Shown here: positions 20,787-29,314 of the stretch, one piece after another
Position numbering within the stretch: position 1 is the first letter of the stretch
Layout: every line of letters begins with the position of its first letter
Source of the DNA: a bacterium
GTDB taxonomy: Bacteria > UBP15 > UBA6099
Length of the DNA stretch: 29,314 nt
Assembly: GCA_029564595.1 (NCBI GenBank)
Contig: JAKQPS010000129.1
Span: 1-29,314 of the forward strand
Direction of reading: 5' to 3'
Position numbers and translations under genes: made by a program
The notes under the pieces: generated by a model
What the model saw: only the letters and a program-made list of their open reading frames with translations
Told to the model about the DNA's origin: nothing
Databases searched by the model: none

Positions 20787-23288
20787 CTATATATCTCCGA
20801 AAGAAACCCGGTTGATGATATCGTCCTGAAGGGGGCGGCCGAGGTCGGTAAAATAGGCGCTGTAGCCGCTGACGCGCACAAGGAGTCCTTTGAAAGCCGC
20901 CGGGTCGCGTTGGGCGGCTCGCAGAGTTTCGTCGTCCACCACGTTGAATTGAACATGCGTTCCGCCCAGCGAAAAGTATCCCCGCAGCATGGCCTCGAAC
21001 TTCCGCCTGTTCTCTTCATTTTTAAATATGCCGGGCATCAACTTCATGTTTAGGGAACTGCCGTTTGTGATTTTAGAGTGTTCTAAAGAAGCGACGGAGC
21101 GCATGACGGCCGTGGGGCCGAGAGATTCCGAGCCGTTCACGGGCGACAGGCTGTTCGAGACGGGTTGTCCGGCGAGGCGTCCGTCTGGAGTCGCGCCCAG
21201 AAGGGAGCCGTCCAGCACGTGCATTCCGTAAGAGAAAAACCCCGGCCTGAACACCCCGCCTTTGCGGATGGATTTGTGTTTCGCAACTTCTTCGCAGAAC
21301 ATGGCCGCTATCCGGCGCGCCATGGCGTCCGCTTCGGGGTTGTCCGAGCCGTAGCGCGGTGTTCGGCTCGACAGAAACGCTCTCATTTTCTCGCGGCCTC
21401 TGAAATTTGTTTTCAGCGCGGCGGAGAGTTCCTTCATTGTGTGTTTTTTCTCGTCGAAAACGAATTTTTTGATGGCCGTCAGCGAATCGGCGACGGTTCC
21501 AAGGCCGCGCGCGCTGATGGAGGCGTAGTTGTATTTCGCCCCGCCTTGAGTCATGTCTTCGGCGTTCCTTATGCAGCCTTCGAGGGTGGCGGATATGAAT
21601 GGATTGTGGAACCCGGCGGCGTAAACTTCGTCTTTGGCGTTTACGCAGCGGGCGATGTGCGCGACGGTGAAGCTCAACTGCCGACGGAAAGCGTCTAAGA
21701 ACTGCTCGAAGGTGTTGAATGTGGAGGGGTCTCCCGTTCGCGGGCCTGCGCGGCGGCCAACCATCCTTATTCTTCCTTGCGTGAAAACCATCTCAAGAAC
21801 GCCCGCCAGCGAGATGTCGTTGCCGGAGGTGCAGCCGAAAGTGTTTCCCTGCGATGTCGGCTCCACGCACCCGATTATCGTGTAGTCTCTCGCGTCTTCA
21901 GCGGAACAGCCTAGCTTTTCCAGCATCGGGATTATGACATCGTCGTTGAACAGAGCGAGTCCCGACGTGGCCGCGTGGACTTCCGAAATCTTCGCGAGGA
22001 ATTCCGGTGGCGTCTTAGAACTGATCCGGACTGAATACGAGTTGCTCATGCCTTCAATATTTTTCACCGCGTCGAGGAATATGATGGAGAGGTCGTTTGA
22101 GGCGTCTTGACCGTCGGGGCCGACGCCGCCGAAGGTGGGAGCCATGCTGTCCGCGCCCATTTCCGACCCGGAATTTTTTCCAAATGAGGGCAGGGGAATG
22201 AGATTGACGCTCAATTTGATGAGGAGTTCCTCGACGAGTTCGAGGGCGCGGGCTTCGGACAGCGCGCCGGATTCAACATCTTTTTTGTAGAAGGGAAATA
22301 GTATTTGGTCTAGCCGTCCGACGGCGCAGATGCCTGCCAGACCGTAGCTGATTCCGCACATGACTTGCGTGAGCCATAAGGAATGGACGGCTTCGTGGAA
22401 AGATTCTGGCGGGAGCCACGGAGCGCGCGATGTGTGCCGGGCGATAAGGAGGAGTTCTTCTTTCCTCGCGGGGTCTGGATGGTTCTCCGCCATCCGCGCG
22501 GCCAAATCGGAATATCTTTTCGCAAACATTCGCGCCGCTTCGCAACAGATTATCGTCGCTTCGAGGAATCGCTTTCCGTCTTCTGTCGCGGGCTGTTCGA
22601 GTCTGCGCGCCGCCATATCCCGCAGCCCCCGAAACCCGTGGCGGACAACATTGTTGTGCCCGATCACAAGATGTCCCTGCGTGTCGAACACGTTGTTCAC
22701 CATGTTGGGGTTGTTCACGGGAAGCTCCGCCGCCGAGCGGGGCAGAGCGCGCCAGCGTCCTTTGGCGAACACTGACAGGCTTTCCGCCAGCCGGGCCGCT
22801 CCGAAGCTTCTGACGAGATCGAACAGCGCGAACGGCGTGAAACCCGGCTTGATGATAAGGCCGTCGCGCTCGAAGAGGCGGCGCTTGCCGTCCCGGACGG
22901 TCTTCCCTCTCCAATAAGGCAATATGTCGTTAAGCAACTCTTTTCTGTCGTCGGGGTCTATGCGGTACGGCCTGTCCGGTCGGTTCAGCAGGTTCTCGAT
23001 GTCCATTTCGAGAACGAGATTCATCTCCCCGCGTTCCACGGGAAGCAGCGTTCCGACGAGCGCGCTGTTGTGGTTGCCGGCTATAAGCTCCTCGTCGAGT
23101 ATGAAAACGGTTTTCTTCCGGAGCGCATTCTCAAACGCTTTCGCCGCGCGGATGGACGGATGCTCTCCTTCCGTCTGCCGGTAGGACTCGGTCACATATC
23201 TCGCCCGCTCAACGCAGATAGTGTACTGTTCGTCGAGAATATTCTTCCTGAGGCGCTGAGTCCGCGATTTCTTTTCGGCAACCGTCAT
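20787..23288 (-). CDS. Glycyl radical enzyme of the dehydratase/lyase type, substrate unknown
   Basis: An 833-residue PFL-like protein with the usual N-terminal PFL domain and C-terminal Gly-radical domain. The thiyl cysteine is C474 in GCVEP (C474-V-E476-P), the pattern of glycerol and propanediol dehydratases, choline TMA-lyase and hydroxyproline dehydratase. The radical glycine is G808 in RVSGYSAYFTDL. H206 in TQGHLVIG aligns, from memory, with the substrate-binding His of glycerol dehydratase. The segment before GRLDQ reads GISYGLAGICAV and lacks the E-S-x-G-x-x-x-S pattern remembered for polyol dehydratases. The substrate pocket therefore probably differs. It is oxygen-sensitive and needs a radical-SAM activase, which is not encoded in this window. 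There is no microcompartment-type N-terminal extension. GGGGAG lies 7 bases before the ATG, and the FGGY kinase gene ends 16 bp upstream. Last gene of the operon. Confidence 0.9.
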   Translation of the reverse strand: MTVAEKKSRTQRLRKNILDEQYTICVERARYVTESYRQTEGEHPSIRAAKAFENALRKKTVFILDEELIAGNHNSALVGTLLPVERGEMNLVLEMDIENLLNRPDRPYRIDPDDRKELLNDILPYWRGKTVRDGKRRLFERDGLIIKPGFTPFALFDLVRSFGAARLAESLSVFAKGRWRALPRSAAELPVNNPNMVNNVFDTQGHLVIGHNNVVRHGFRGLRDMAARRLEQPATEDGKRFLEATIICCEAARMFAKRYSDLAARMAENHPDPARKEELLLIARHTSRAPWLPPESFHEAVHSLWLTQVMCGISYGLAGICAVGRLDQILFPFYKKDVESGALSEARALELVEELLIKLSVNLIPLPSFGKNSGSEMGADSMAPTFGGVGPDGQDASNDLSIIFLDAVKNIEGMSNSYSVRISSKTPPEFLAKISEVHAATSGLALFNDDVIIPMLEKLGCSAEDARDYTIIGCVEPTSQGNTFGCTSGNDISLAGVLEMVFTQGRIRMVGRRAGPRTGDPSTFNTFEQFLDAFRRQLSFTVAHIARCVNAKDEVYAAGFHNPFISATLEGCIRNAEDMTQGGAKYNYASISARGLGTVADSLTAIKKFVFDEKKHTMKELSAALKTNFRGREKMRAFLSSRTPRYGSDNPEADAMARRIAAMFCEEVAKHKSIRKGGVFRPGFFSYGMHVLDGSLLGATPDGRLAGQPVSNSLSPVNGSESLGPTAVMRSVASLEHSKITNGSSLNMKLMPGIFKNEENRRKFEAMLRGYFSLGGTHVQFNVVDDETLRAAQRDPAAFKGLLVRVSGYSAYFTDLGRPLQDDIINRVSFGDI

Positions 23289-23304
23289 GTCGATGCTCCC
23301 CTCG

Positions 23305-24885
23305 TCAGCATCCCTTTTCGGGGTATCCGGTTATCTGTTGCATCTCTTTGAAAATGGGAAGCAGTTGTTTGTAGATTTTAGTGTAAACCCGGTCATAGAG
23401 GGCGGAGTATAGGGCGACGTTTTTCGGGATAGGTTCAAAAATGTCGCCGGGGCGGGTCATGGCGGCGACGGCGTCGTCGAAGCCGTTGAAAAAACCGAGA
23501 CCTACCGCGGCGACGATGGCGGCTCCGAGAGCTGAAGCCTCGTGAGTGTGAGGTCTCTGCGCGGGCATCCCGAACACGTCAGCGCATATCTGCATGGCCG
23601 AAGAGCTTTGAGAGCCTCCGCCGGACACGCGCAACCCAGTTATTGGAATCTTATTCCTTTTCTCAGTCAGTTGCGCGCCTTCTTTCAGGGCGAAAACCAG
23701 TCCTTCAAGTATGGCTCGGTAAAGGTGGGCGCGTTTGTGGAAGTCGCAGAAACCGATGACCGAGCCGCGCGCGCATCGGGCCTTTTCCGGAGCCGGAGTC
23801 CAGTACGGCTGGAGCGTCAGCCCCATCGACCCCGGCGGGATGTCCTTTATCAGAGCGTCGAGAAGTTGCTCGGGGGATACCCCTTTTTCGCCGGCTTCGA
23901 GGCGCTCCTGAAGCCCAAACTCCTCTTTGAACCATGTTATCATCCACGCGCCGCGCAACACGGCCACTTCGGTATAGTAGCGTCCCGGGACAGCCGAGGG
24001 ATACGGCGGCCAGAAAGGTTTTAATTCCACATATTTATCGTTCATCGTGTTAATTGTCGAAATGGTTCCGAAACTGATGCAGGCGTTTTCGGGGGAAACG
24101 CAACCCGCTCCGAGGATTTCGCAAGCTTTGTCGTTAGCCGCGGCGATGACTGGAAGTCCGGCGGGGATTCCGGTTTCTTCAGAAGCTTTGAGGGTCACAT
24201 TGCCCAGCAGTCCGGTCGGCGAAACCAGATCAGGCAGTTTTTCAAGCTCGATCGGGAACAATCTGTTCTTCGGATCGAACCGTCCCGCCCACCTTCCTTT
24301 TTTGATGCTGAACGGCACATAGCCGACTATGCTGCCGCTTGAATCCACGAACTCGCCTGTCAGCTTTAGCGCGAACCATCCGGACAGATAAATGTGTTTA
24401 TGGACGCGTTTCCAGATTTCCGGCTGATTCTGGCGAATCCAGTTTGATTCGCAATCGCGGATCGCGCCCTCAATGAGTTCTTCGTATTTAACCGCTTTCA
24501 GCAACGGGCGGAAGACCGAAGGGATGATGTTGCCGGAGTCGGCTTTGCGCTCGTCCAGCCAGACGATTGCCGGACGTAGCGGCGCTCCGCTTTTATCCAC
24601 GTCGATAAGCGTGTTCCGTTGAGTGGCGACCGCGACGCCCTTGATCGCGTCTTTTGATTTGCTGTTCCTTTCTAGAAGCTTTCGGCAAGAGCGGCAAAGC
24701 ATTTCCCAGAAATATTCCGGCCGCTGTTCGGCCCATCCCGGTTGCGGAGAGTAACAAAGCTCAATGGGCGTCTTCACCATATCGCGGATGTTGCCCTCGA
24801 AGTCGATCAGCGCGGCCCGTATCGATTGCGTTCCCGCGTCGATTGCGAGCGCCAGTTCCGCTTTTCCAATCCCTTTTCCAGCCAT
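23305..24885 (-). CDS. FGGY-family polyol/sugar kinase
   Basis: A 526-residue two-domain ASKHA kinase. The phosphate-binding loop is DAGTQS (from D16), then WAEQRPEYFW, AIVWLDER (W109), AANDKACE with the catalytic-type D252, an ISFGTIS loop, and adenosine motif SGGGSQSSS. Phosphorylation of a sugar or polyol by ATP is expected. Compared with GlpK (from memory), the RE pair that binds glycerol is R90-N91 here and GDQQ is replaced by NDKA. It is thus unlikely to be a plain glycerol kinase and may act on another polyol. The ATG at 24885 is chosen because AAGG is 7 bases upstream; an in-frame GTG lies 6 bases earlier. It sits 32 bp after the FAD oxidase gene. Confidence 0.87.
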   Translation of the reverse strand: MAGKGIGKAELALAIDAGTQSIRAALIDFEGNIRDMVKTPIELCYSPQPGWAEQRPEYFWEMLCRSCRKLLERNSKSKDAIKGVAVATQRNTLIDVDKSGAPLRPAIVWLDERKADSGNIIPSVFRPLLKAVKYEELIEGAIRDCESNWIRQNQPEIWKRVHKHIYLSGWFALKLTGEFVDSSGSIVGYVPFSIKKGRWAGRFDPKNRLFPIELEKLPDLVSPTGLLGNVTLKASEETGIPAGLPVIAAANDKACEILGAGCVSPENACISFGTISTINTMNDKYVELKPFWPPYPSAVPGRYYTEVAVLRGAWMITWFKEEFGLQERLEAGEKGVSPEQLLDALIKDIPPGSMGLTLQPYWTPAPEKARCARGSVIGFCDFHKRAHLYRAILEGLVFALKEGAQLTEKRNKIPITGLRVSGGGSQSSSAMQICADVFGMPAQRPHTHEASALGAAIVAAVGLGFFNGFDDAVAAMTRPGDIFEPIPKNVALYSALYDRVYTKIYKQLLPIFKEMQQITGYPEKGC

Positions 24886-24923
24886 GTCCACGCCTTTTAG
24901 GAATGACCGCGCATTCTGCCGGG

Positions 24924-26627
24924 TCAGGTTCCGCTCTCGCTGTTTAGCGCGAGTTGCCCGCCGGGGTTCATTATGTTGTTCGGATCAAAATGCGTTTTCA
25001 GAGCGCGGAGCGCGTCCATCTGCGTTTTTCCCAGATGCGTTTCCATCCAAGGAGACAGCAGTTTTCCGACTCCGTGGTGGTGGCTCAACGAGCCTCCGTT
25101 TTCAACTATTGCGCTCACGATTCTGCTGTGAACTTCGTTGTATTCTTCCGGTCTTTCCGGTTTCAGCACGAAAATGAAATACAGGTTGGTTCCATTCGGA
25201 TAGAAATGGGACGCGTGGGTCATGCAGATTGAGCCGGGCCTGCTTTTCACGACAGCCCGAACCTCTTTGTGAAGCCGCAGCAGGTTGTCCCATGTAACGG
25301 CCGATTCCAGCGTGTCCGTCACTATGCCGAAGTCGAGAAAATCCTCCCGCATCAGCGGCTCCTTGTAGCGGGTTTTCTCCCACGCCTTCACAACCACCGC
25401 CGGAAGCTTCATCGCTCCGTTCGCGCGGCACACTTTTCCAATGCTTTTCTTCACATGTTTCGCGTATCCCTTCTCTCCCTCGACCGTTCCCATGCACACG
25501 CATCTGCTCATCGGCTTCATTACCCGAGCCGACATGAACTTTTCAAAATATGCGTTGTCGAACCCGTACAATTTCAGGCCCCTGTCCGTTTCCTCAGGGT
25601 CGGAAATTCTGTAAACCGCGGGCAACCCGAACTCGGACTGCATGATTTCTCTCGACGCGTTGACGGCGGCCTCCCACGAAGGGAACATGAAAGCGAAATA
25701 CTGCCTGTTTTCCGGCATGAAGCGGAATATTTTCATCGTGATTTCCACAAGCGCTCCGAAAGCGCCCTCGCTGCCTTTCATGATGTCGTTCAGTTTCGGG
25801 CCTGTGGCGGTCGCGGGATATTCCAGCGTTTTGAAAGTCCCCGCCGGGGTGACGTATTCCTGCGAGATCGCGAGGTGGTAAGCGTCTCCATAATACGTGG
25901 AAGCCTGCCCGGATCCGAGCGCGGCTATCCAGCCGCCGACGGACGACATCTCGAACGATTGAGGAAAATGCCCGCATGTGTATCTTCGGGCGGTCTTGAA
26001 CATCTGAGGCGCGTTGTTCAGCGCCGCCTCGAAATCAGGCCCCATCATGCCCGGTTGAACCGTCGCCGTCTGGTTCGCCTCGTTGATGCTCAGCAGCTTA
26101 TTCATGTGGGTCTTCATCACAAGCGTCACGCCGCCCTTTTCCGGCGCGATTCCCATCACGACGGAAGACCCGCCTCCATAAACGCAAACTGGTATTCTAT
26201 GCTTGTCGCAGTATTCTACTATGCGGCGGACGTCGTTCTTGTCCCTCGGATGCGCCACGGCATCGGTCACATTCCGGGGTTTGTTCATGCGCAGGCCCAT
26301 CACTTCTTTCATTGTTTGACCGTGGCTGTATTTCACGCGGTCATAGTCGTTCGTCGACACATTTTCAGAGCCGACAATTTCCTTCAGCGCGTTTATATGC
26401 TCATCGCTTAAACCCGGTTTGCCGTTCAACGAGACCTTCTCGTTTCCTTCATTCTGTTTATGAGAAAAATACTCTTCCGTGACGCCGAATTCGGACATCA
26501 TCATCTCCACCAGTTCGGCGCGAGGATGCTTGAACTCGTTCGGCTCGCCGAACTTGAAAATGGAACGGTACGATCCCGGCTCGGGAGCTTTCTCCGTCCA
26601 GTCCGGCGTGAATTTTTTTCCAGACAT
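24924..26627 (-). CDS. FAD-binding oxidase resembling alkylglycerone-phosphate synthase
   Basis: A 567-residue VAO/PCMH-family flavoprotein. The N-terminal segment (KFGEPNEFKHPRAELVEMM) is of AGPS type. The FAD domain has HPRDKNDVRRIVEYC and GGGSS (151-155), then FPQSFEMSSVGGWIAALGSG (221-240) and STYYGD. The C-terminal cap carries SHHHGVGK (515-522) and DPNNIMNPG. The triple His and its context match the active-site histidines of AGPS, which exchanges an acyl for an alkyl group on dihydroxyacetone phosphate. Bacterial relatives often act instead as oxidases or dehydrogenases of unknown specificity, and the genes around it are catabolic. A phosphorylated three-carbon-like substrate is therefore likely, but ether-lipid synthesis is unproven. 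AAAGGAGG lies just before the ATG. The GlpD-like gene ends 61 bp upstream. Confidence 0.85.
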   Translation of the reverse strand: MSGKKFTPDWTEKAPEPGSYRSIFKFGEPNEFKHPRAELVEMMMSEFGVTEEYFSHKQNEGNEKVSLNGKPGLSDEHINALKEIVGSENVSTNDYDRVKYSHGQTMKEVMGLRMNKPRNVTDAVAHPRDKNDVRRIVEYCDKHRIPVCVYGGGSSVVMGIAPEKGGVTLVMKTHMNKLLSINEANQTATVQPGMMGPDFEAALNNAPQMFKTARRYTCGHFPQSFEMSSVGGWIAALGSGQASTYYGDAYHLAISQEYVTPAGTFKTLEYPATATGPKLNDIMKGSEGAFGALVEITMKIFRFMPENRQYFAFMFPSWEAAVNASREIMQSEFGLPAVYRISDPEETDRGLKLYGFDNAYFEKFMSARVMKPMSRCVCMGTVEGEKGYAKHVKKSIGKVCRANGAMKLPAVVVKAWEKTRYKEPLMREDFLDFGIVTDTLESAVTWDNLLRLHKEVRAVVKSRPGSICMTHASHFYPNGTNLYFIFVLKPERPEEYNEVHSRIVSAIVENGGSLSHHHGVGKLLSPWMETHLGKTQMDALRALKTHFDPNNIMNPGGQLALNSESGT

Positions 26628-26688
26628 ATTGCCCTCCTTTTTTCTTGCGCGTTTTATGTTTTGTGTCCGCCGCCATCAACCCGCGGAG

Positions 26689-28335
26689 TTAACGCGGGAT
26701 CTCGAACATTTTTTTCGCTTCCGCGACTTCCTTTGATTTGCGCGAATCGTCCCAGCCTAGTTCTTCCGCCGCCACATCCGCCACGGCGTCGACCACCGCG
26801 TCGCCCGGATCGCCAATCGTGCCAAGTCCAGTCCGGCGAAATAGGATATCCTTCAGCGTAAGCGCCATTTCCTCCCTGATAGCGTAAACAGCCTGCGCGG
26901 CGATTTCACCGTCCGCGTTCAATGGCGCCGCCAGAGCTTTGTCCTGACGCGCTATCTCCAGAACTCCGTCAATTTCCCTTCCATAATATTTTCCCAAACG
27001 CCAAATCGTTTCATTGTTGAAATCATTGTTGGCCGTTTTCTTCTCATCAAGAAAAGCGTTCATATCTTCAATTTCGCATCCGGCTAGATGCTGTTTGTCC
27101 GTGACGCATTTCGGTTCCCTCAAATTTAATTTTCGCGAGACCATTTTCATCACATTATGCGCGAGGTTGCGGCTTGTCGTATATTTGCCGCCTTCGACGG
27201 TGATCAACCCGGACAGGCCGTCTTTTTCGTTGTCGTATATCTCGTACCGCCGGGACGACTCCCGAACGGATTTCTTTTTATCTTCAAGCAGAGGACGCAG
27301 ACCGCCGTAAGCGTGTTCCACATCCTCGTAGCCGATCCGCTCCTCTCCGCGCATCGCGTCGTTCACCATTCCGATCAGTTCCATTATCGCTTCGCGCGTC
27401 ACCCTGTAGTCGTCTGGGTTTCCCTCGTAATCCTTGTCGGTGGGGCCAATCAGCGTTCGTCCTCTCCACGGGGTCATCACGAATCCGCCGCCGGAGGAGG
27501 TTACCATCGCCAGCATGCCGTTAAGCGCGGGTTTCTTCGTTATTATATGAATTCCTTCCGATCTCCTGATGCGCCGCGATCCGCTTTCGCCTCGCGCCGC
27601 GTCCAGTATCAAGTCCGCCCAAGGCCCGCCGCAGTTGATCGTCAACTTGCTCCTCAATTCCACGCTTCTTCCTGATATAAGGTCTTTTACATTCACTCCC
27701 GCGATCCGCTTTCCAGAGCCGTCTGCGGAATAAACAAACCCTTCGACTTTGCTGTAATTGGAAACGCGCGCCCCGCTTTTAACCGCCGACTTCACGAACG
27801 CCAAGGTCAACCGCTCAGGAAAAATGCTCGCGCAGTCGTAATATGAAAAAGCTTTTTTGAAACCTTTGCGCGGGATAGACGGCTCCATCTCAAGAGCTTT
27901 CATCGCCGGAACCGCCTTGTGGAATCCAATGCTTTTGCTCTTGTCCCAGGTGCGCCCTTTATCAAAAGAAAGAGAATCGTAAAGCATCATCCCAAGCCTG
28001 ACTGCCCACGTATGTTTTGTTATTCCCTGCTTATAGCAAGGGACTATCACCCGCATCGGATAGACTAGGTTCGGCGCGATATTCTCCAGCGTCCGGCGCT
28101 CTTTCAAAGATTCTCTCACTATGCCGAACTCAAGGTTGGCAAGATATCTGAATCCGCCGTGGATCAGCTTGGAAGTGGCTGCGGAAGTGGCGCATCCGAA
28201 ATCGTTTTTTTCCACCAGAGCCACCGAAAGCCCTCTTGATGCCGCGTCATAAGCCACCGCCGCTCCGGTGATTCCTCCGCCTATCACCACAACGTCGAAC
28301 TCGGTCGTGTTCAGGTCTTCAATGAACCTTTTCAT
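26689..28335 (-). CDS. glpD: GlpD/GlpA-like FAD-dependent glycerol-3-phosphate dehydrogenase
   Basis: A 548-residue flavoprotein. The Rossmann motif FDVVVIGGGITGAAVAYDAA is at 13-32, then ATSAATSKLIHGGFRYL, the GlpD signature including HGGxRYL, and a substrate region TPWRGRTLIGPTD. A C-terminal GlpO/DAO_C domain (about 400-520) is present. It should oxidise sn-glycerol 3-phosphate or a close analogue to the keto form, passing electrons to quinone at the membrane or to a partner. The length fits GlpD rather than GlpA with its extra Fe-S domain; no BFD-type Cys cluster is visible. The RBS GAGG lies 8 bases before the ATG at 28335. It is 21 bp downstream of the regulator gene. Physiological substrate may differ, given the unusual kinase in the operon. 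Confidence 0.88.
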   Translation of the reverse strand: MKRFIEDLNTTEFDVVVIGGGITGAAVAYDAASRGLSVALVEKNDFGCATSAATSKLIHGGFRYLANLEFGIVRESLKERRTLENIAPNLVYPMRVIVPCYKQGITKHTWAVRLGMMLYDSLSFDKGRTWDKSKSIGFHKAVPAMKALEMEPSIPRKGFKKAFSYYDCASIFPERLTLAFVKSAVKSGARVSNYSKVEGFVYSADGSGKRIAGVNVKDLISGRSVELRSKLTINCGGPWADLILDAARGESGSRRIRRSEGIHIITKKPALNGMLAMVTSSGGGFVMTPWRGRTLIGPTDKDYEGNPDDYRVTREAIMELIGMVNDAMRGEERIGYEDVEHAYGGLRPLLEDKKKSVRESSRRYEIYDNEKDGLSGLITVEGGKYTTSRNLAHNVMKMVSRKLNLREPKCVTDKQHLAGCEIEDMNAFLDEKKTANNDFNNETIWRLGKYYGREIDGVLEIARQDKALAAPLNADGEIAAQAVYAIREEMALTLKDILFRRTGLGTIGDPGDAVVDAVADVAAEELGWDDSRKSKEVAEAKKMFEIPR

Positions 28336-28356
28336 GCGTTCCGCCTCAATCCGCGA

Positions 28357-29085
28357 TTATTCCGCTTGGATTTTCGCGATTGTTTTGAACAGTTCCTGTT
28401 CGGCGCGTATGTACATGGCCAGCGCTTTCTTTCGGGCTTGTTCGGAGTCCTTTTTCTTTATCGCGTCGCACATGTCGCGGTGATAGACTTCCGTGTTCCG
28501 CGCGTTCTTCTCGACGTCGTAGTACAGATATGCGTAATCTTTCAATAGTCCGGTGAACGCGTTGAGCAGTATAACGAAAAAAGCGTTTCCGCCGGCTCTC
28601 GCGATGATGTTGTGAAATCGCCAATCCTTTTCCGCCATAGGCATTTCGCCGCTTTCGAAGACTATTTTTTCGAGGGCTAGAATGTCTTTCTCTGATCTGT
28701 TCCTCGCGGCGAGGCTTGCCATTTCAGGCATAAGGATTATTCTCAGTTCGGAGAGATTCCTTAATATGCCGACATCCGGTGTTCCGTCCCTGATCAACAA
28801 CTGTTTCGCCAGCTCCAAGCTTCCGCTTTCGAGATAATCCCGGACGTAAACGCCGTCTCCATGCCTGATTTCCACAAGTTCCATGCTTTCTAATTTGTTA
28901 AGAGCCTCGCGAACTGTGGAGCGGTTCACGTTCATTGTGTCCGCAAGCTCGCGCTCTGGCGGCAGCTTGGCTCCGGCAGGAATCTGTCTGGAAATAATCT
29001 TGTTCTTGAGTTGTTCGGCGATACCTTCGTGAAGCCTGACGCGTTGAGGAGGAACGAAGTGGGAGGAGTTATTAACGCGATTCAT
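28357..29085 (-). CDS. GntR-family transcriptional regulator, FadR/FCD type
   Basis: A 242-residue protein with an N-terminal winged helix (about 16-85: AGAKLPPERELADTMNVNRS, then EIRHGDGVYVR) and an all-helical FCD ligand domain (about 100-235). FCD metal-site His residues can be seen in WRFHNII and EVYHRDM. The last one usually found before the C-terminus appears to be Tyr in ALAMYIRAE. FadR-subfamily members such as PdhR and LldR repress carbon-use genes and are released by an organic acid or sugar acid. The gene is first in the five-gene operon, and a PdhR/LldR-like palindrome overlaps the predicted start site. Autoregulation with ligand induction is likely. The ATG at 29085 has a modest GGGGATG upstream. 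Confidence 0.9.
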   Translation of the reverse strand: MNRVNNSSHFVPPQRVRLHEGIAEQLKNKIISRQIPAGAKLPPERELADTMNVNRSTVREALNKLESMELVEIRHGDGVYVRDYLESGSLELAKQLLIRDGTPDVGILRNLSELRIILMPEMASLAARNRSEKDILALEKIVFESGEMPMAEKDWRFHNIIARAGGNAFFVILLNAFTGLLKDYAYLYYDVEKNARNTEVYHRDMCDAIKKKDSEQARKKALAMYIRAEQELFKTIAKIQAE

Positions 29086-29111: not shown

Positions 29112-29134
29112 ATTGGTTCGGTGGCCCGACCAAT
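29112..29134 (-). promoter_or_regulatory. Probable operator of the FadR-type regulator
   Basis: ATTGGT (29112-29117) and ACCAAT (29129-29134) form perfect inverted arms separated by 11 bp. The inner GTGGCCCGACCAATT also resembles the LldR/PdhR consensus TTGG-N5-CCAA. The site begins 2 bp downstream of the -10 box and covers the predicted +1 near 29130, a classic repression position 27 bp before the start codon. Confidence 0.65.
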
Positions 29135-29136
29135 TT

Positions 29137-29165
29137 ATTGTGCGCTTTTTCTGCGGCCTTGTCAA
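29137..29165 (-). promoter_or_regulatory. Promoter of the glycyl-radical/GlpD operon
   Basis: On the minus strand, a perfect TTGACA (29165-29160) is followed after exactly 17 bp by CACAAT (29142-29137, four of six). The operator-like palindrome starts almost immediately downstream. Confidence 0.72.
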
Positions 29166-29176
29166 CTTATTTCAAC

Positions 29177-29293
29177 CCGGATTCGTCGATAGAGCCGACG
29201 AACCGGGGCGATTTTCATAGCGGCGAACTGCTTTGTTGCCGACGCATTTTTTTGTTCATGAACCATAAGTTCTATTCACTGCAAAAATGCGTC
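29177..29293. repeat. Two inverted repeats upstream of the operon promoter
   Basis: CCGGATTCGTCG (29177-29188) pairs with CGACGAACCGG (29196-29206) with one bulged base. Further out, GACGCATTTTTTTG (29241-29254) and CAAAAATGCGTC (29282-29293) form 12-bp arms enclosing a perfect 10-bp palindrome GTTCATGAAC (29254-29263). No gene is visible from 29086 to the window end. These may be terminators or regulatory sites of an upstream gene outside the window. Confidence 0.45.
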
Positions 29294-29314
29294 TTGCGCC
29301 TCGCATTTCATCCG

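What the first reader, a model, noticed from the sequence alone, without database searches (positions are those of the whole stretch)
20787..29085. Five-gene operon joining a glycyl radical enzyme with a FGGY kinase, AGPS-like FAD oxidase and GlpD: candidate new catabolic pathway
Seen: five codirectional genes with gaps of 16-61 bp under one regulated promoter. Known: GlpD and FGGY kinases handle phosphorylated polyols; GCVEP-type glycyl radical enzymes dehydrate or cleave diols and amino-alcohols; AGPS-like oxidases bind phosphorylated C3 compounds. Inference: the operon breaks down a glycerol-like or alkyl-glycerol-like substrate. Neither a classical glycerol regulon (no GlpF or GlpK type) nor a propanediol or choline cluster (no microcompartment, activase or aldehyde dehydrogenase) fits.
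Basis: partly seen in the sequence, partly recalled or inferred. Interest (0 to 1): 0.78.

Follow-up and report, generated by a model that had tools for sequence, protein, structure and literature searches.

The report
Known enzyme trio beside unrelated radical enzyme
The five adjacent genes are real, but they do not form a conserved pathway: three of them (a kinase and two flavin enzymes) are a gene set already described in other bacteria, and the glycyl radical enzyme next to them, from an uncharacterised but widespread branch, is found beside them only in this one genus.

Summary
In detail: five codirectional genes (GntR/FCD, GlpD-like, AGPS-like FAD enzyme, FGGY kinase, glycyl radical enzyme), gaps 21, 61, 32 and 16 bp, conserved in order in one sister species and under purifying selection. 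The five-gene pathway is not supported. The GlpD/AGPS/FGGY trio matches by family composition the published Pseudomonas aeruginosa operon PA3026-PA3024 and recurs elsewhere, whole or in part, without a glycyl radical enzyme. The glycyl radical enzyme lies outside the characterised clades placed in my tree, in a strongly supported uncharacterised clade found in Asgard archaea, Planctomycetota, Myxococcota, desulfobacteria and others; none of the 19 well-flanked loci outside the genus has the kinase or flavoenzymes nearby. In a third species of the genus the regulator, GlpD, AGPS and one kinase are missing, apparently by recombination between tandem kinase paralogues, while the radical enzyme persists. 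Its pocket keeps the catalytic Cys, Glu and His but lacks the glycerol/diol dehydratase contacts. Most likely this is a GntR-controlled phospho-polyol/glycerolipid redox module that became joined to a stand-alone radical eliminase. The radical-enzyme clade is the part worth pursuing. No biochemical function is shown here.

The parts
28357..29085 (-). GntR/FCD transcriptional regulator (242 aa)
   Evidence: PF00392 2.7e-22, PF07729 8.7e-16; best NCBIfam NanR-type well below cut-off
29137..29165 (-). promoter-like TTGACA-N17-CACAAT before the first gene
   Evidence: consensus scan only (region total 6 found against 4.3 expected); lies in a block conserved in the sister species, which keeps TTGACA but has a changed -10 (alignment)
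29112..29134 (.). candidate operator, inverted arms ATTGGT/ACCAAT
   Evidence: block conserved in the sister species with one arm base changed; function inferred
26689..28335 (-). GlpD-like FAD dehydrogenase (548 aa)
   Evidence: PF01266 + PF16901; 3da1 243 bits, E. coli GlpD 182 bits; 316 bits against a cut-off of 360 for NCBIfam GlpD
24924..26627 (-). AGPS-like FAD enzyme (567 aa), HHH at 516-518, Y483, R340, R427, H220
   Evidence: 2uuu 242 bits; alignment to Dictyostelium and guinea-pig AGPS; motif survey
23305..24891 (-). FGGY kinase (528 aa), XylB/GlpK-intermediate
   Evidence: PF00370 + PF02782; all NCBIfam equivalogs below cut-off; alignment to GlpK
20787..23288 (-). glycyl radical enzyme (833 aa): C474, E476, H206, G808 radical-loop glycine
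   Evidence: PF02901 + PF01228; tree; active-site table; model pLDDT 89.7 with top PDB match glycerol dehydratase Z 47.5, tied with choline TMA-lyase

Best explanation
The region joins two separate functional units. Unit 1 is a GntR/FCD-controlled GlpD/AGPS-like/FGGY module of a known kind: the kinase phosphorylates a glycerol-like polyol, the GlpD-like flavoenzyme oxidises the sn-2 hydroxyl to a dihydroxyacetone-phosphate type product, and the AGPS-like flavoenzyme works on that product (acyl/alkyl-DHAP exchange or a related flavin step). Unit 2 is a stand-alone glycyl radical enzyme of an uncharacterised eliminase-type clade, activated in trans by one of the genome's three radical-SAM activases, abstracting H through C474 with E476 as general base, on a substrate that is probably not glycerol or propanediol. 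They sit together because the kinase gene next to the GRE was duplicated or inserted with the module in this genus, not because of a conserved pathway. Shown: gene content, homology, conservation, non-co-occurrence, the hybrid kinase in one relative. Inferred: all substrates, reaction directions, activation in trans, the order of events.
For: Trio precedent: P. aeruginosa PA3026 (FAD oxidoreductase)-PA3025 (GlpD homologue)-PA3024 (FGGY kinase), induced together by GliR and proposed to act from glycerol to alkylglycerone phosphate (PMC8151288). The same trio is adjacent in G030 (L082); GlpD lies beside AGPS in 11 of 30 AGPS loci read, two of them from this genus, and a 63% identical kinase lies beside a 62% identical AGPS in G191; AGPS with GlpD and a YegS lipid kinase in L179 and Streptomyces. 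GRE: clade of 29 rows (96/92) separated from glycerol and propanediol dehydratase, PflD, YbiW, CutC, HypD and the 6lon enzyme at a 100/99 branch. 41 GRE loci, 21 with at least 3 kb on both sides; the 19 outside the genus have no GlpD, AGPS or FGGY. Genomes with near AGPS orthologues (G191, G177) lack this GRE clade by score, 434-450 bits. In G003 the kinase next to the GRE matches the upstream paralogue (96-100% in most blocks) until near its 3' end and then the downstream one (92-97%), with GntR, GlpD and AGPS gone.
Against: In the two species with the full set, order and short gaps are kept and all five genes are under purifying selection, so coupling within this genus is possible. FGGY-GRE adjacency with a 16 bp gap is kept in all three species where it can be read. 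Orthologue searches depend on MAGs of 67-97% completeness. G003's missing genes could be an assembly error, though the longest exact match between the paralogues is only 49-100 bp. The neighbour scan used blastp with the window's own proteins, so diverged neighbours could be missed. The HHH/Tyr motif is shared by AGPS-like proteins in polyol operons, so it does not prove AGPS chemistry.
Confidence: 0.68

Rival explanations
1. A true lineage-specific five-gene pathway: kinase, two flavoenzymes and GRE act in sequence on a glycerol-like or alkylglycerol-like substrate, assembled recently in this genus.
For: Order, short gaps and purifying selection in two species; a single candidate promoter and operator before the first gene.
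Against: Two of four genus members lack identifiable orthologues of GlpD and AGPS but keep the GRE; no co-occurrence outside the genus; the GRE pocket lacks the glycerol contacts.
Confidence: 0.13
2. The kinase and the GRE form the functional pair: the FGGY kinase makes a phosphorylated polyol or anhydro-polyol that the GRE then eliminates, as PflD and YbiW have been crystallised with anhydro-hexitol 6-phosphates.
For: FGGY-GRE adjacency with a 16 bp gap is kept in G000, G002 and, after the deletion, G003; PDB entries 8id0 and 8id7 show GREs with phosphorylated ligands.
Against: The GRE does not group with PflD or YbiW; no kinase beside any well-flanked GRE orthologue outside the genus; deletion between tandem kinases would keep this adjacency without selection.
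Confidence: 0.1
3. The AGPS-like/FGGY part is a pentitol or sugar catabolic module rather than a glycerolipid one, like the Alphaproteobacterial operons with sugar ABC transporter, LacI regulator, 'xylulokinase' and glycerol dehydrogenase. This is a rival only about the substrate of unit 1, not about the two-unit reading.
For: AGPS-like gene directly followed by an annotated xylulokinase and ugpC-type sugar transporter genes on Paracoccus, Shinella and Roseibium plasmids; the window kinase scores highest against the XylB model.
Against: Those AGPS-like proteins are only about 30% identical and have T at the R515 position where the window has R; here a GlpD-like gene, not a transporter, is the neighbour.
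Confidence: 0.2

Closest known systems
Pseudomonas aeruginosa GliR operon PA3026-PA3025-PA3024 (PMC8151288)
   Same: same three families in one operon: FAD oxidoreductase proposed to act at acyl/alkylglycerone phosphate, GlpD homologue, FGGY kinase
   Different: AraC-type activator and a downstream YegS lipid kinase there; GntR/FCD regulator and a GRE here; gene order differs; sequences were not compared directly; the deletion there had no phenotype in the tests made
B12-independent glycerol dehydratase (1r8w) and propanediol dehydratase (5i2a)
   Same: fold (Z 47.5 and about 46.6, rmsd 1.6-1.7), catalytic Cys, Glu and His, best PDB sequence match
   Different: D447 to S, Y640 to F, H281 and S282 replaced; separate clade; no adjacent activase, aldehyde dehydrogenase or alcohol dehydrogenase
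Choline TMA-lyase CutC
   Same: fold (Z 47.3, tied with glycerol dehydratase) and the T-S dipeptide after the GCVEP loop
   Different: D at the H206 position in CutC; separate clade; 457 bits against a cut-off of 1050; no microcompartment genes nearby
Eukaryotic alkyl-DHAP synthase (2uuu, 4bby)
   Same: FAD_binding_4 plus FAD-oxidase_C, HHHGVG, Tyr and two Arg aligned with the enzyme's catalytic residues
   Different: bacterial operon with kinase and GlpD; activity unknown

Membership tests
Glycyl radical enzyme superfamily | PFL-like domain, C-terminal glycine radical domain with RVSGYS loop, thiyl Cys | tested here: met
   PF02901 1.6e-158 and PF01228 5.9e-28; C474 and G808 invariant in 22 sequences; fold Z 47.5
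B12-independent glycerol/propanediol dehydratase | substrate contacts H164, H281, S282, E435, D447, Y640 (1r8w numbering, roles from general knowledge) | tested here: not met
   H164 and E435 kept; H281 and S282 replaced in either alignment, D447 to S488, Y640 to F685
B12-independent glycerol/propanediol dehydratase | groups with characterised dehydratases in a tree | tested here: not met
   separate clade, split 100/99; TIGR01774 592 against a cut-off of 678
Choline TMA-lyase | curated model score and the Asp at the H206 position | tested here: not met
   457 against a cut-off of 1050; H206 where CutC has D
AGPS (alkyl-DHAP synthase) | two FAD domains with HHH, Tyr and two Arg of the active site | tested here: met
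   largely met also by AGPS-like proteins of unknown activity
AGPS (alkyl-DHAP synthase) | alkyl-DHAP synthase activity or ether lipids in the organism | not testable with these tools
   needs enzyme assay or lipid analysis
GliR-type AGPS/GlpD/FGGY operon | three families adjacent and codirectional | tested here: met
   precedent; also L082
GliR-type AGPS/GlpD/FGGY operon | AraC-type GliR regulator | tested here: not met
   regulator is GntR/FCD
GlpK glycerol kinase | glycerol contacts R83, E84, W103, Y135, D245, Q246 (E. coli numbering, general knowledge) and curated score | tested here: not met
   TIGR01311 144 against a cut-off of 590; R, W and D kept, E84 to N, Q246 to K, Y135 changed by my reading of the alignment
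GlpD glycerol-3-phosphate dehydrogenase | DAO + DAO_C domains and curated equivalog score | tested here: inconclusive
   both domains present; GLRPL and GGK motifs aligned; 316 against a cut-off of 360

The most novel reading that the evidence does not exclude
The GRE clade (signature GCVEP followed by CTSGND, and RPGFFSYGMHV), shared by Asgard archaea and many anaerobic bacteria, catalyses a reaction not known for any characterised glycyl radical enzyme, and in this genus it has been recruited beside a kinase/flavoenzyme module to break down a glycerol-ether or phospho-polyol substrate anaerobically.
Probability: 0.1. Interest if true: 0.75.

Novelty: new variant of a known kind. Interest (0 to 1): 0.36.

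Why it matters
It shows how a tidy-looking operon can be a composite, and argues against assaying the five genes as one pathway. What remains of value is a phylogenetically broad, uncharacterised glycyl radical enzyme clade, crossing bacteria and Asgard archaea, with a sequence signature and a pocket unlike diol dehydratases; it is a defined target for substrate screening. The recurring AGPS/GlpD/FGGY set without a proven substrate is an open question that the same assays would address.

Tried and rejected
A viral-contig scan for the GRE found no relatives. A first GRE tree contained misread frames (stops in five rows) and was rebuilt. NCBIfam equivalogs for five of the genome's other GREs gave no assignment. 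Conserved partners of the GRE in other genomes: members of the sister subclade often have an adjacent activase and in some cases thiolase or aldehyde dehydrogenase, but the window's own subclade has no conserved neighbour, so no substrate could be read from context. Rfam: no hits. The idea that the window's end joins contig C111 by overlap alone was rejected because the 141 bp overlap is a dispersed repeat with an identical copy in C150; synteny with G002 supports the join instead. Literature searches for a GRE with alkylglycerol found nothing, and for FAD oxidoreductase with xylulokinase and polyol nothing.

Full report
Observation. The five ORFs are at the stated coordinates on the - strand, with gaps of 21, 61, 32 and 16 bp, and Pfam gives GntR/FCD, DAO/DAO_C (GlpD), FAD_binding_4/FAD-oxidase_C, FGGY and PFL-like/Gly_radical. 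No NCBIfam equivalog cut-off is reached by any of the five. secD, secF, recJ, apt and relA follow in the same direction, the first after 147 bp. A TTGACA-N17-CACAAT match and an ATTGGT/ACCAAT arm pair precede the first gene and lie in a block that is conserved in the sister species, with a changed base in one arm and a changed -10 there. This is a consensus match, not evidence of regulation.

Relatives. The window is a whole contig of a MAG; by matching contig lengths its genus includes bacterium ADurb.Bin236 (G003) and UBP15 UBA6099 (G002). In G002 all five genes keep their order (L022), and all five evolve under purifying selection (dN/dS 0.08-0.13). In G002 a second FGGY gene, 84% identical to the window kinase, lies upstream of the regulator; in the window's genome the orthologous gene lies on C111, whose first 141 bp are identical to the window's last 141 bp. 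That overlap is a dispersed repeat with 42 matches in the genome, so the join rests on synteny with G002.

A deletion in one relative. In G003 only one kinase lies before the GRE, and GntR, GlpD and AGPS are absent there; its best GlpD and AGPS matches anywhere in the genome are 40% and 50% paralogues. Its kinase DNA matches the upstream paralogue of the window's genome at 96-100% in most blocks (90-97% in a few) and then, from near the 3' end onward, the downstream paralogue at 92-97%, where the upstream one falls to 78% and below. The simplest reading is recombination between the tandem kinases that removed the cassette. Core-gene identity puts G003 nearest the window (96.8%, against 95.0% for G002 and 93.5% for G001), which fits a loss in G003; an assembly error is not excluded, although the longest exact match between the paralogues is only 49 bp in G000 and 100 bp in G002. 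G001 also lacks the GlpD and AGPS orthologues in its 88% complete assembly.

The trio. P. aeruginosa PA3026-PA3024 encodes an FAD oxidoreductase proposed to act at acylglycerone phosphate, a GlpD homologue and an FGGY kinase; the authors propose glycerol to alkylglycerone phosphate and found no phenotype on deletion in the conditions tested (PMC8151288). I did not compare those sequences directly. The same trio is adjacent in G030 (L082). Among 30 AGPS-family loci (1.5 kb flanks), 11 have GlpD beside it (two are this genus), 4 have a clear FGGY neighbour (two are this genus), and several have a YegS lipid kinase or an iron-sulphur-type protein. In G191 a 62% identical AGPS is followed by a 63% identical kinase, without GlpD or GRE. 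Alphaproteobacterial plasmids carry an AGPS-like gene followed by 'xylulokinase' and sugar transporter genes. The window AGPS keeps the residues aligned with guinea-pig H300, R419, R515, Y578 and H615-617 (roles from general knowledge), but nearly all AGPS-family members surveyed keep most of these, so they do not fix the substrate.

The glycyl radical enzyme. Best PDB sequence match is glycerol dehydratase 1r8w at 448 bits, while the orthologues from the genus to G041 score 965-1824 bits. An IQ-TREE of 51 rows puts it in a clade of 29 (support 96/92), separated at 100/99 from a group holding glycerol and propanediol dehydratase, PflD, YbiW, CutC, HypD and the 6lon enzyme. Arylacetate decarboxylases, X-succinate synthases, isethionate lyase and classical PFL were not in the tree; they score lower than glycerol dehydratase in sequence. 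The clade spans UBP15, Planctomycetota, Myxococcota, Desulfatibacillum, Syntrophomonadaceae, Hydrogenedentota and Asgard archaea (Helarchaeota, Freyarchaeota, Jordarchaeia). C474, E476 and H206 are invariant; the glycerol contacts D447, Y640, H281 and S282 are replaced. The model (pLDDT 89.7) matches glycerol dehydratase (Z 47.5, rmsd 1.6), CutC (47.3) and propanediol dehydratase (47.2) equally, and decarboxylases and PFL less well, so an eliminase-type fold is supported but a substrate is not.

Co-occurrence. Of 41 GRE loci, 21 have at least 3 kb on both sides; apart from the two from this genus none has GlpD, AGPS or FGGY. Genomes with near AGPS orthologues (G191, G177) have only distant GREs, best full matches 37-40% and at most 450 bits. 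G026 has an AGPS (62%) and a GRE of the sister subclade (40%) on different contigs. The genome has three activases over the cut-off, two beside other GREs and one without an adjacent GRE.

Verdict. Confirmed as an observation; partly supported as an interpretation. The most likely account is a GntR-controlled module of a known kind next to a stand-alone radical enzyme of an uncharacterised clade. Whether kinase and radical enzyme cooperate in this genus cannot be settled by sequence.

Noticed in passing
window 29174-29314: The contig ends in one copy of a dispersed element of about 185-190 bp with inverted-repeat-like ends and strong predicted folding (z -4.0); 42 matches in the genome, 88-95% identical among copies read in full; no Y1 transposase found in the genome.
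   Followed up: partly
G000 contigs C40, C143, C131, C15: The genome encodes at least five further glycyl radical enzymes, none assigned by a curated equivalog model, and one activase gene (C143:52263) without a neighbouring GRE.
   Followed up: partly
L127 8190-9880: In a Helarchaeota contig the GRE orthologue follows a B12-binding corrinoid protein and a URO-D-type protein, suggesting a methyl-transfer context there.
   Followed up: no
L105 6807-13645 and L117 8502-13503: In the sister GRE subclade, thiolase and, in L105, an aldehyde dehydrogenase lie upstream of the GRE and an activase downstream.
   Followed up: no
L134, L136, L137: Alphaproteobacterial plasmids share an operon of LacI, AGPS-like oxidoreductase, annotated xylulokinase, sugar ABC transporter and a glycerol-dehydrogenase-type gene; its substrate is not stated in the records.
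   Followed up: no
L022 10468-12054 and 16426-18006: Tandem FGGY paralogues are about 74% identical in the N-terminal half and 93% in the C-terminal half, consistent with gene conversion.
   Followed up: partly
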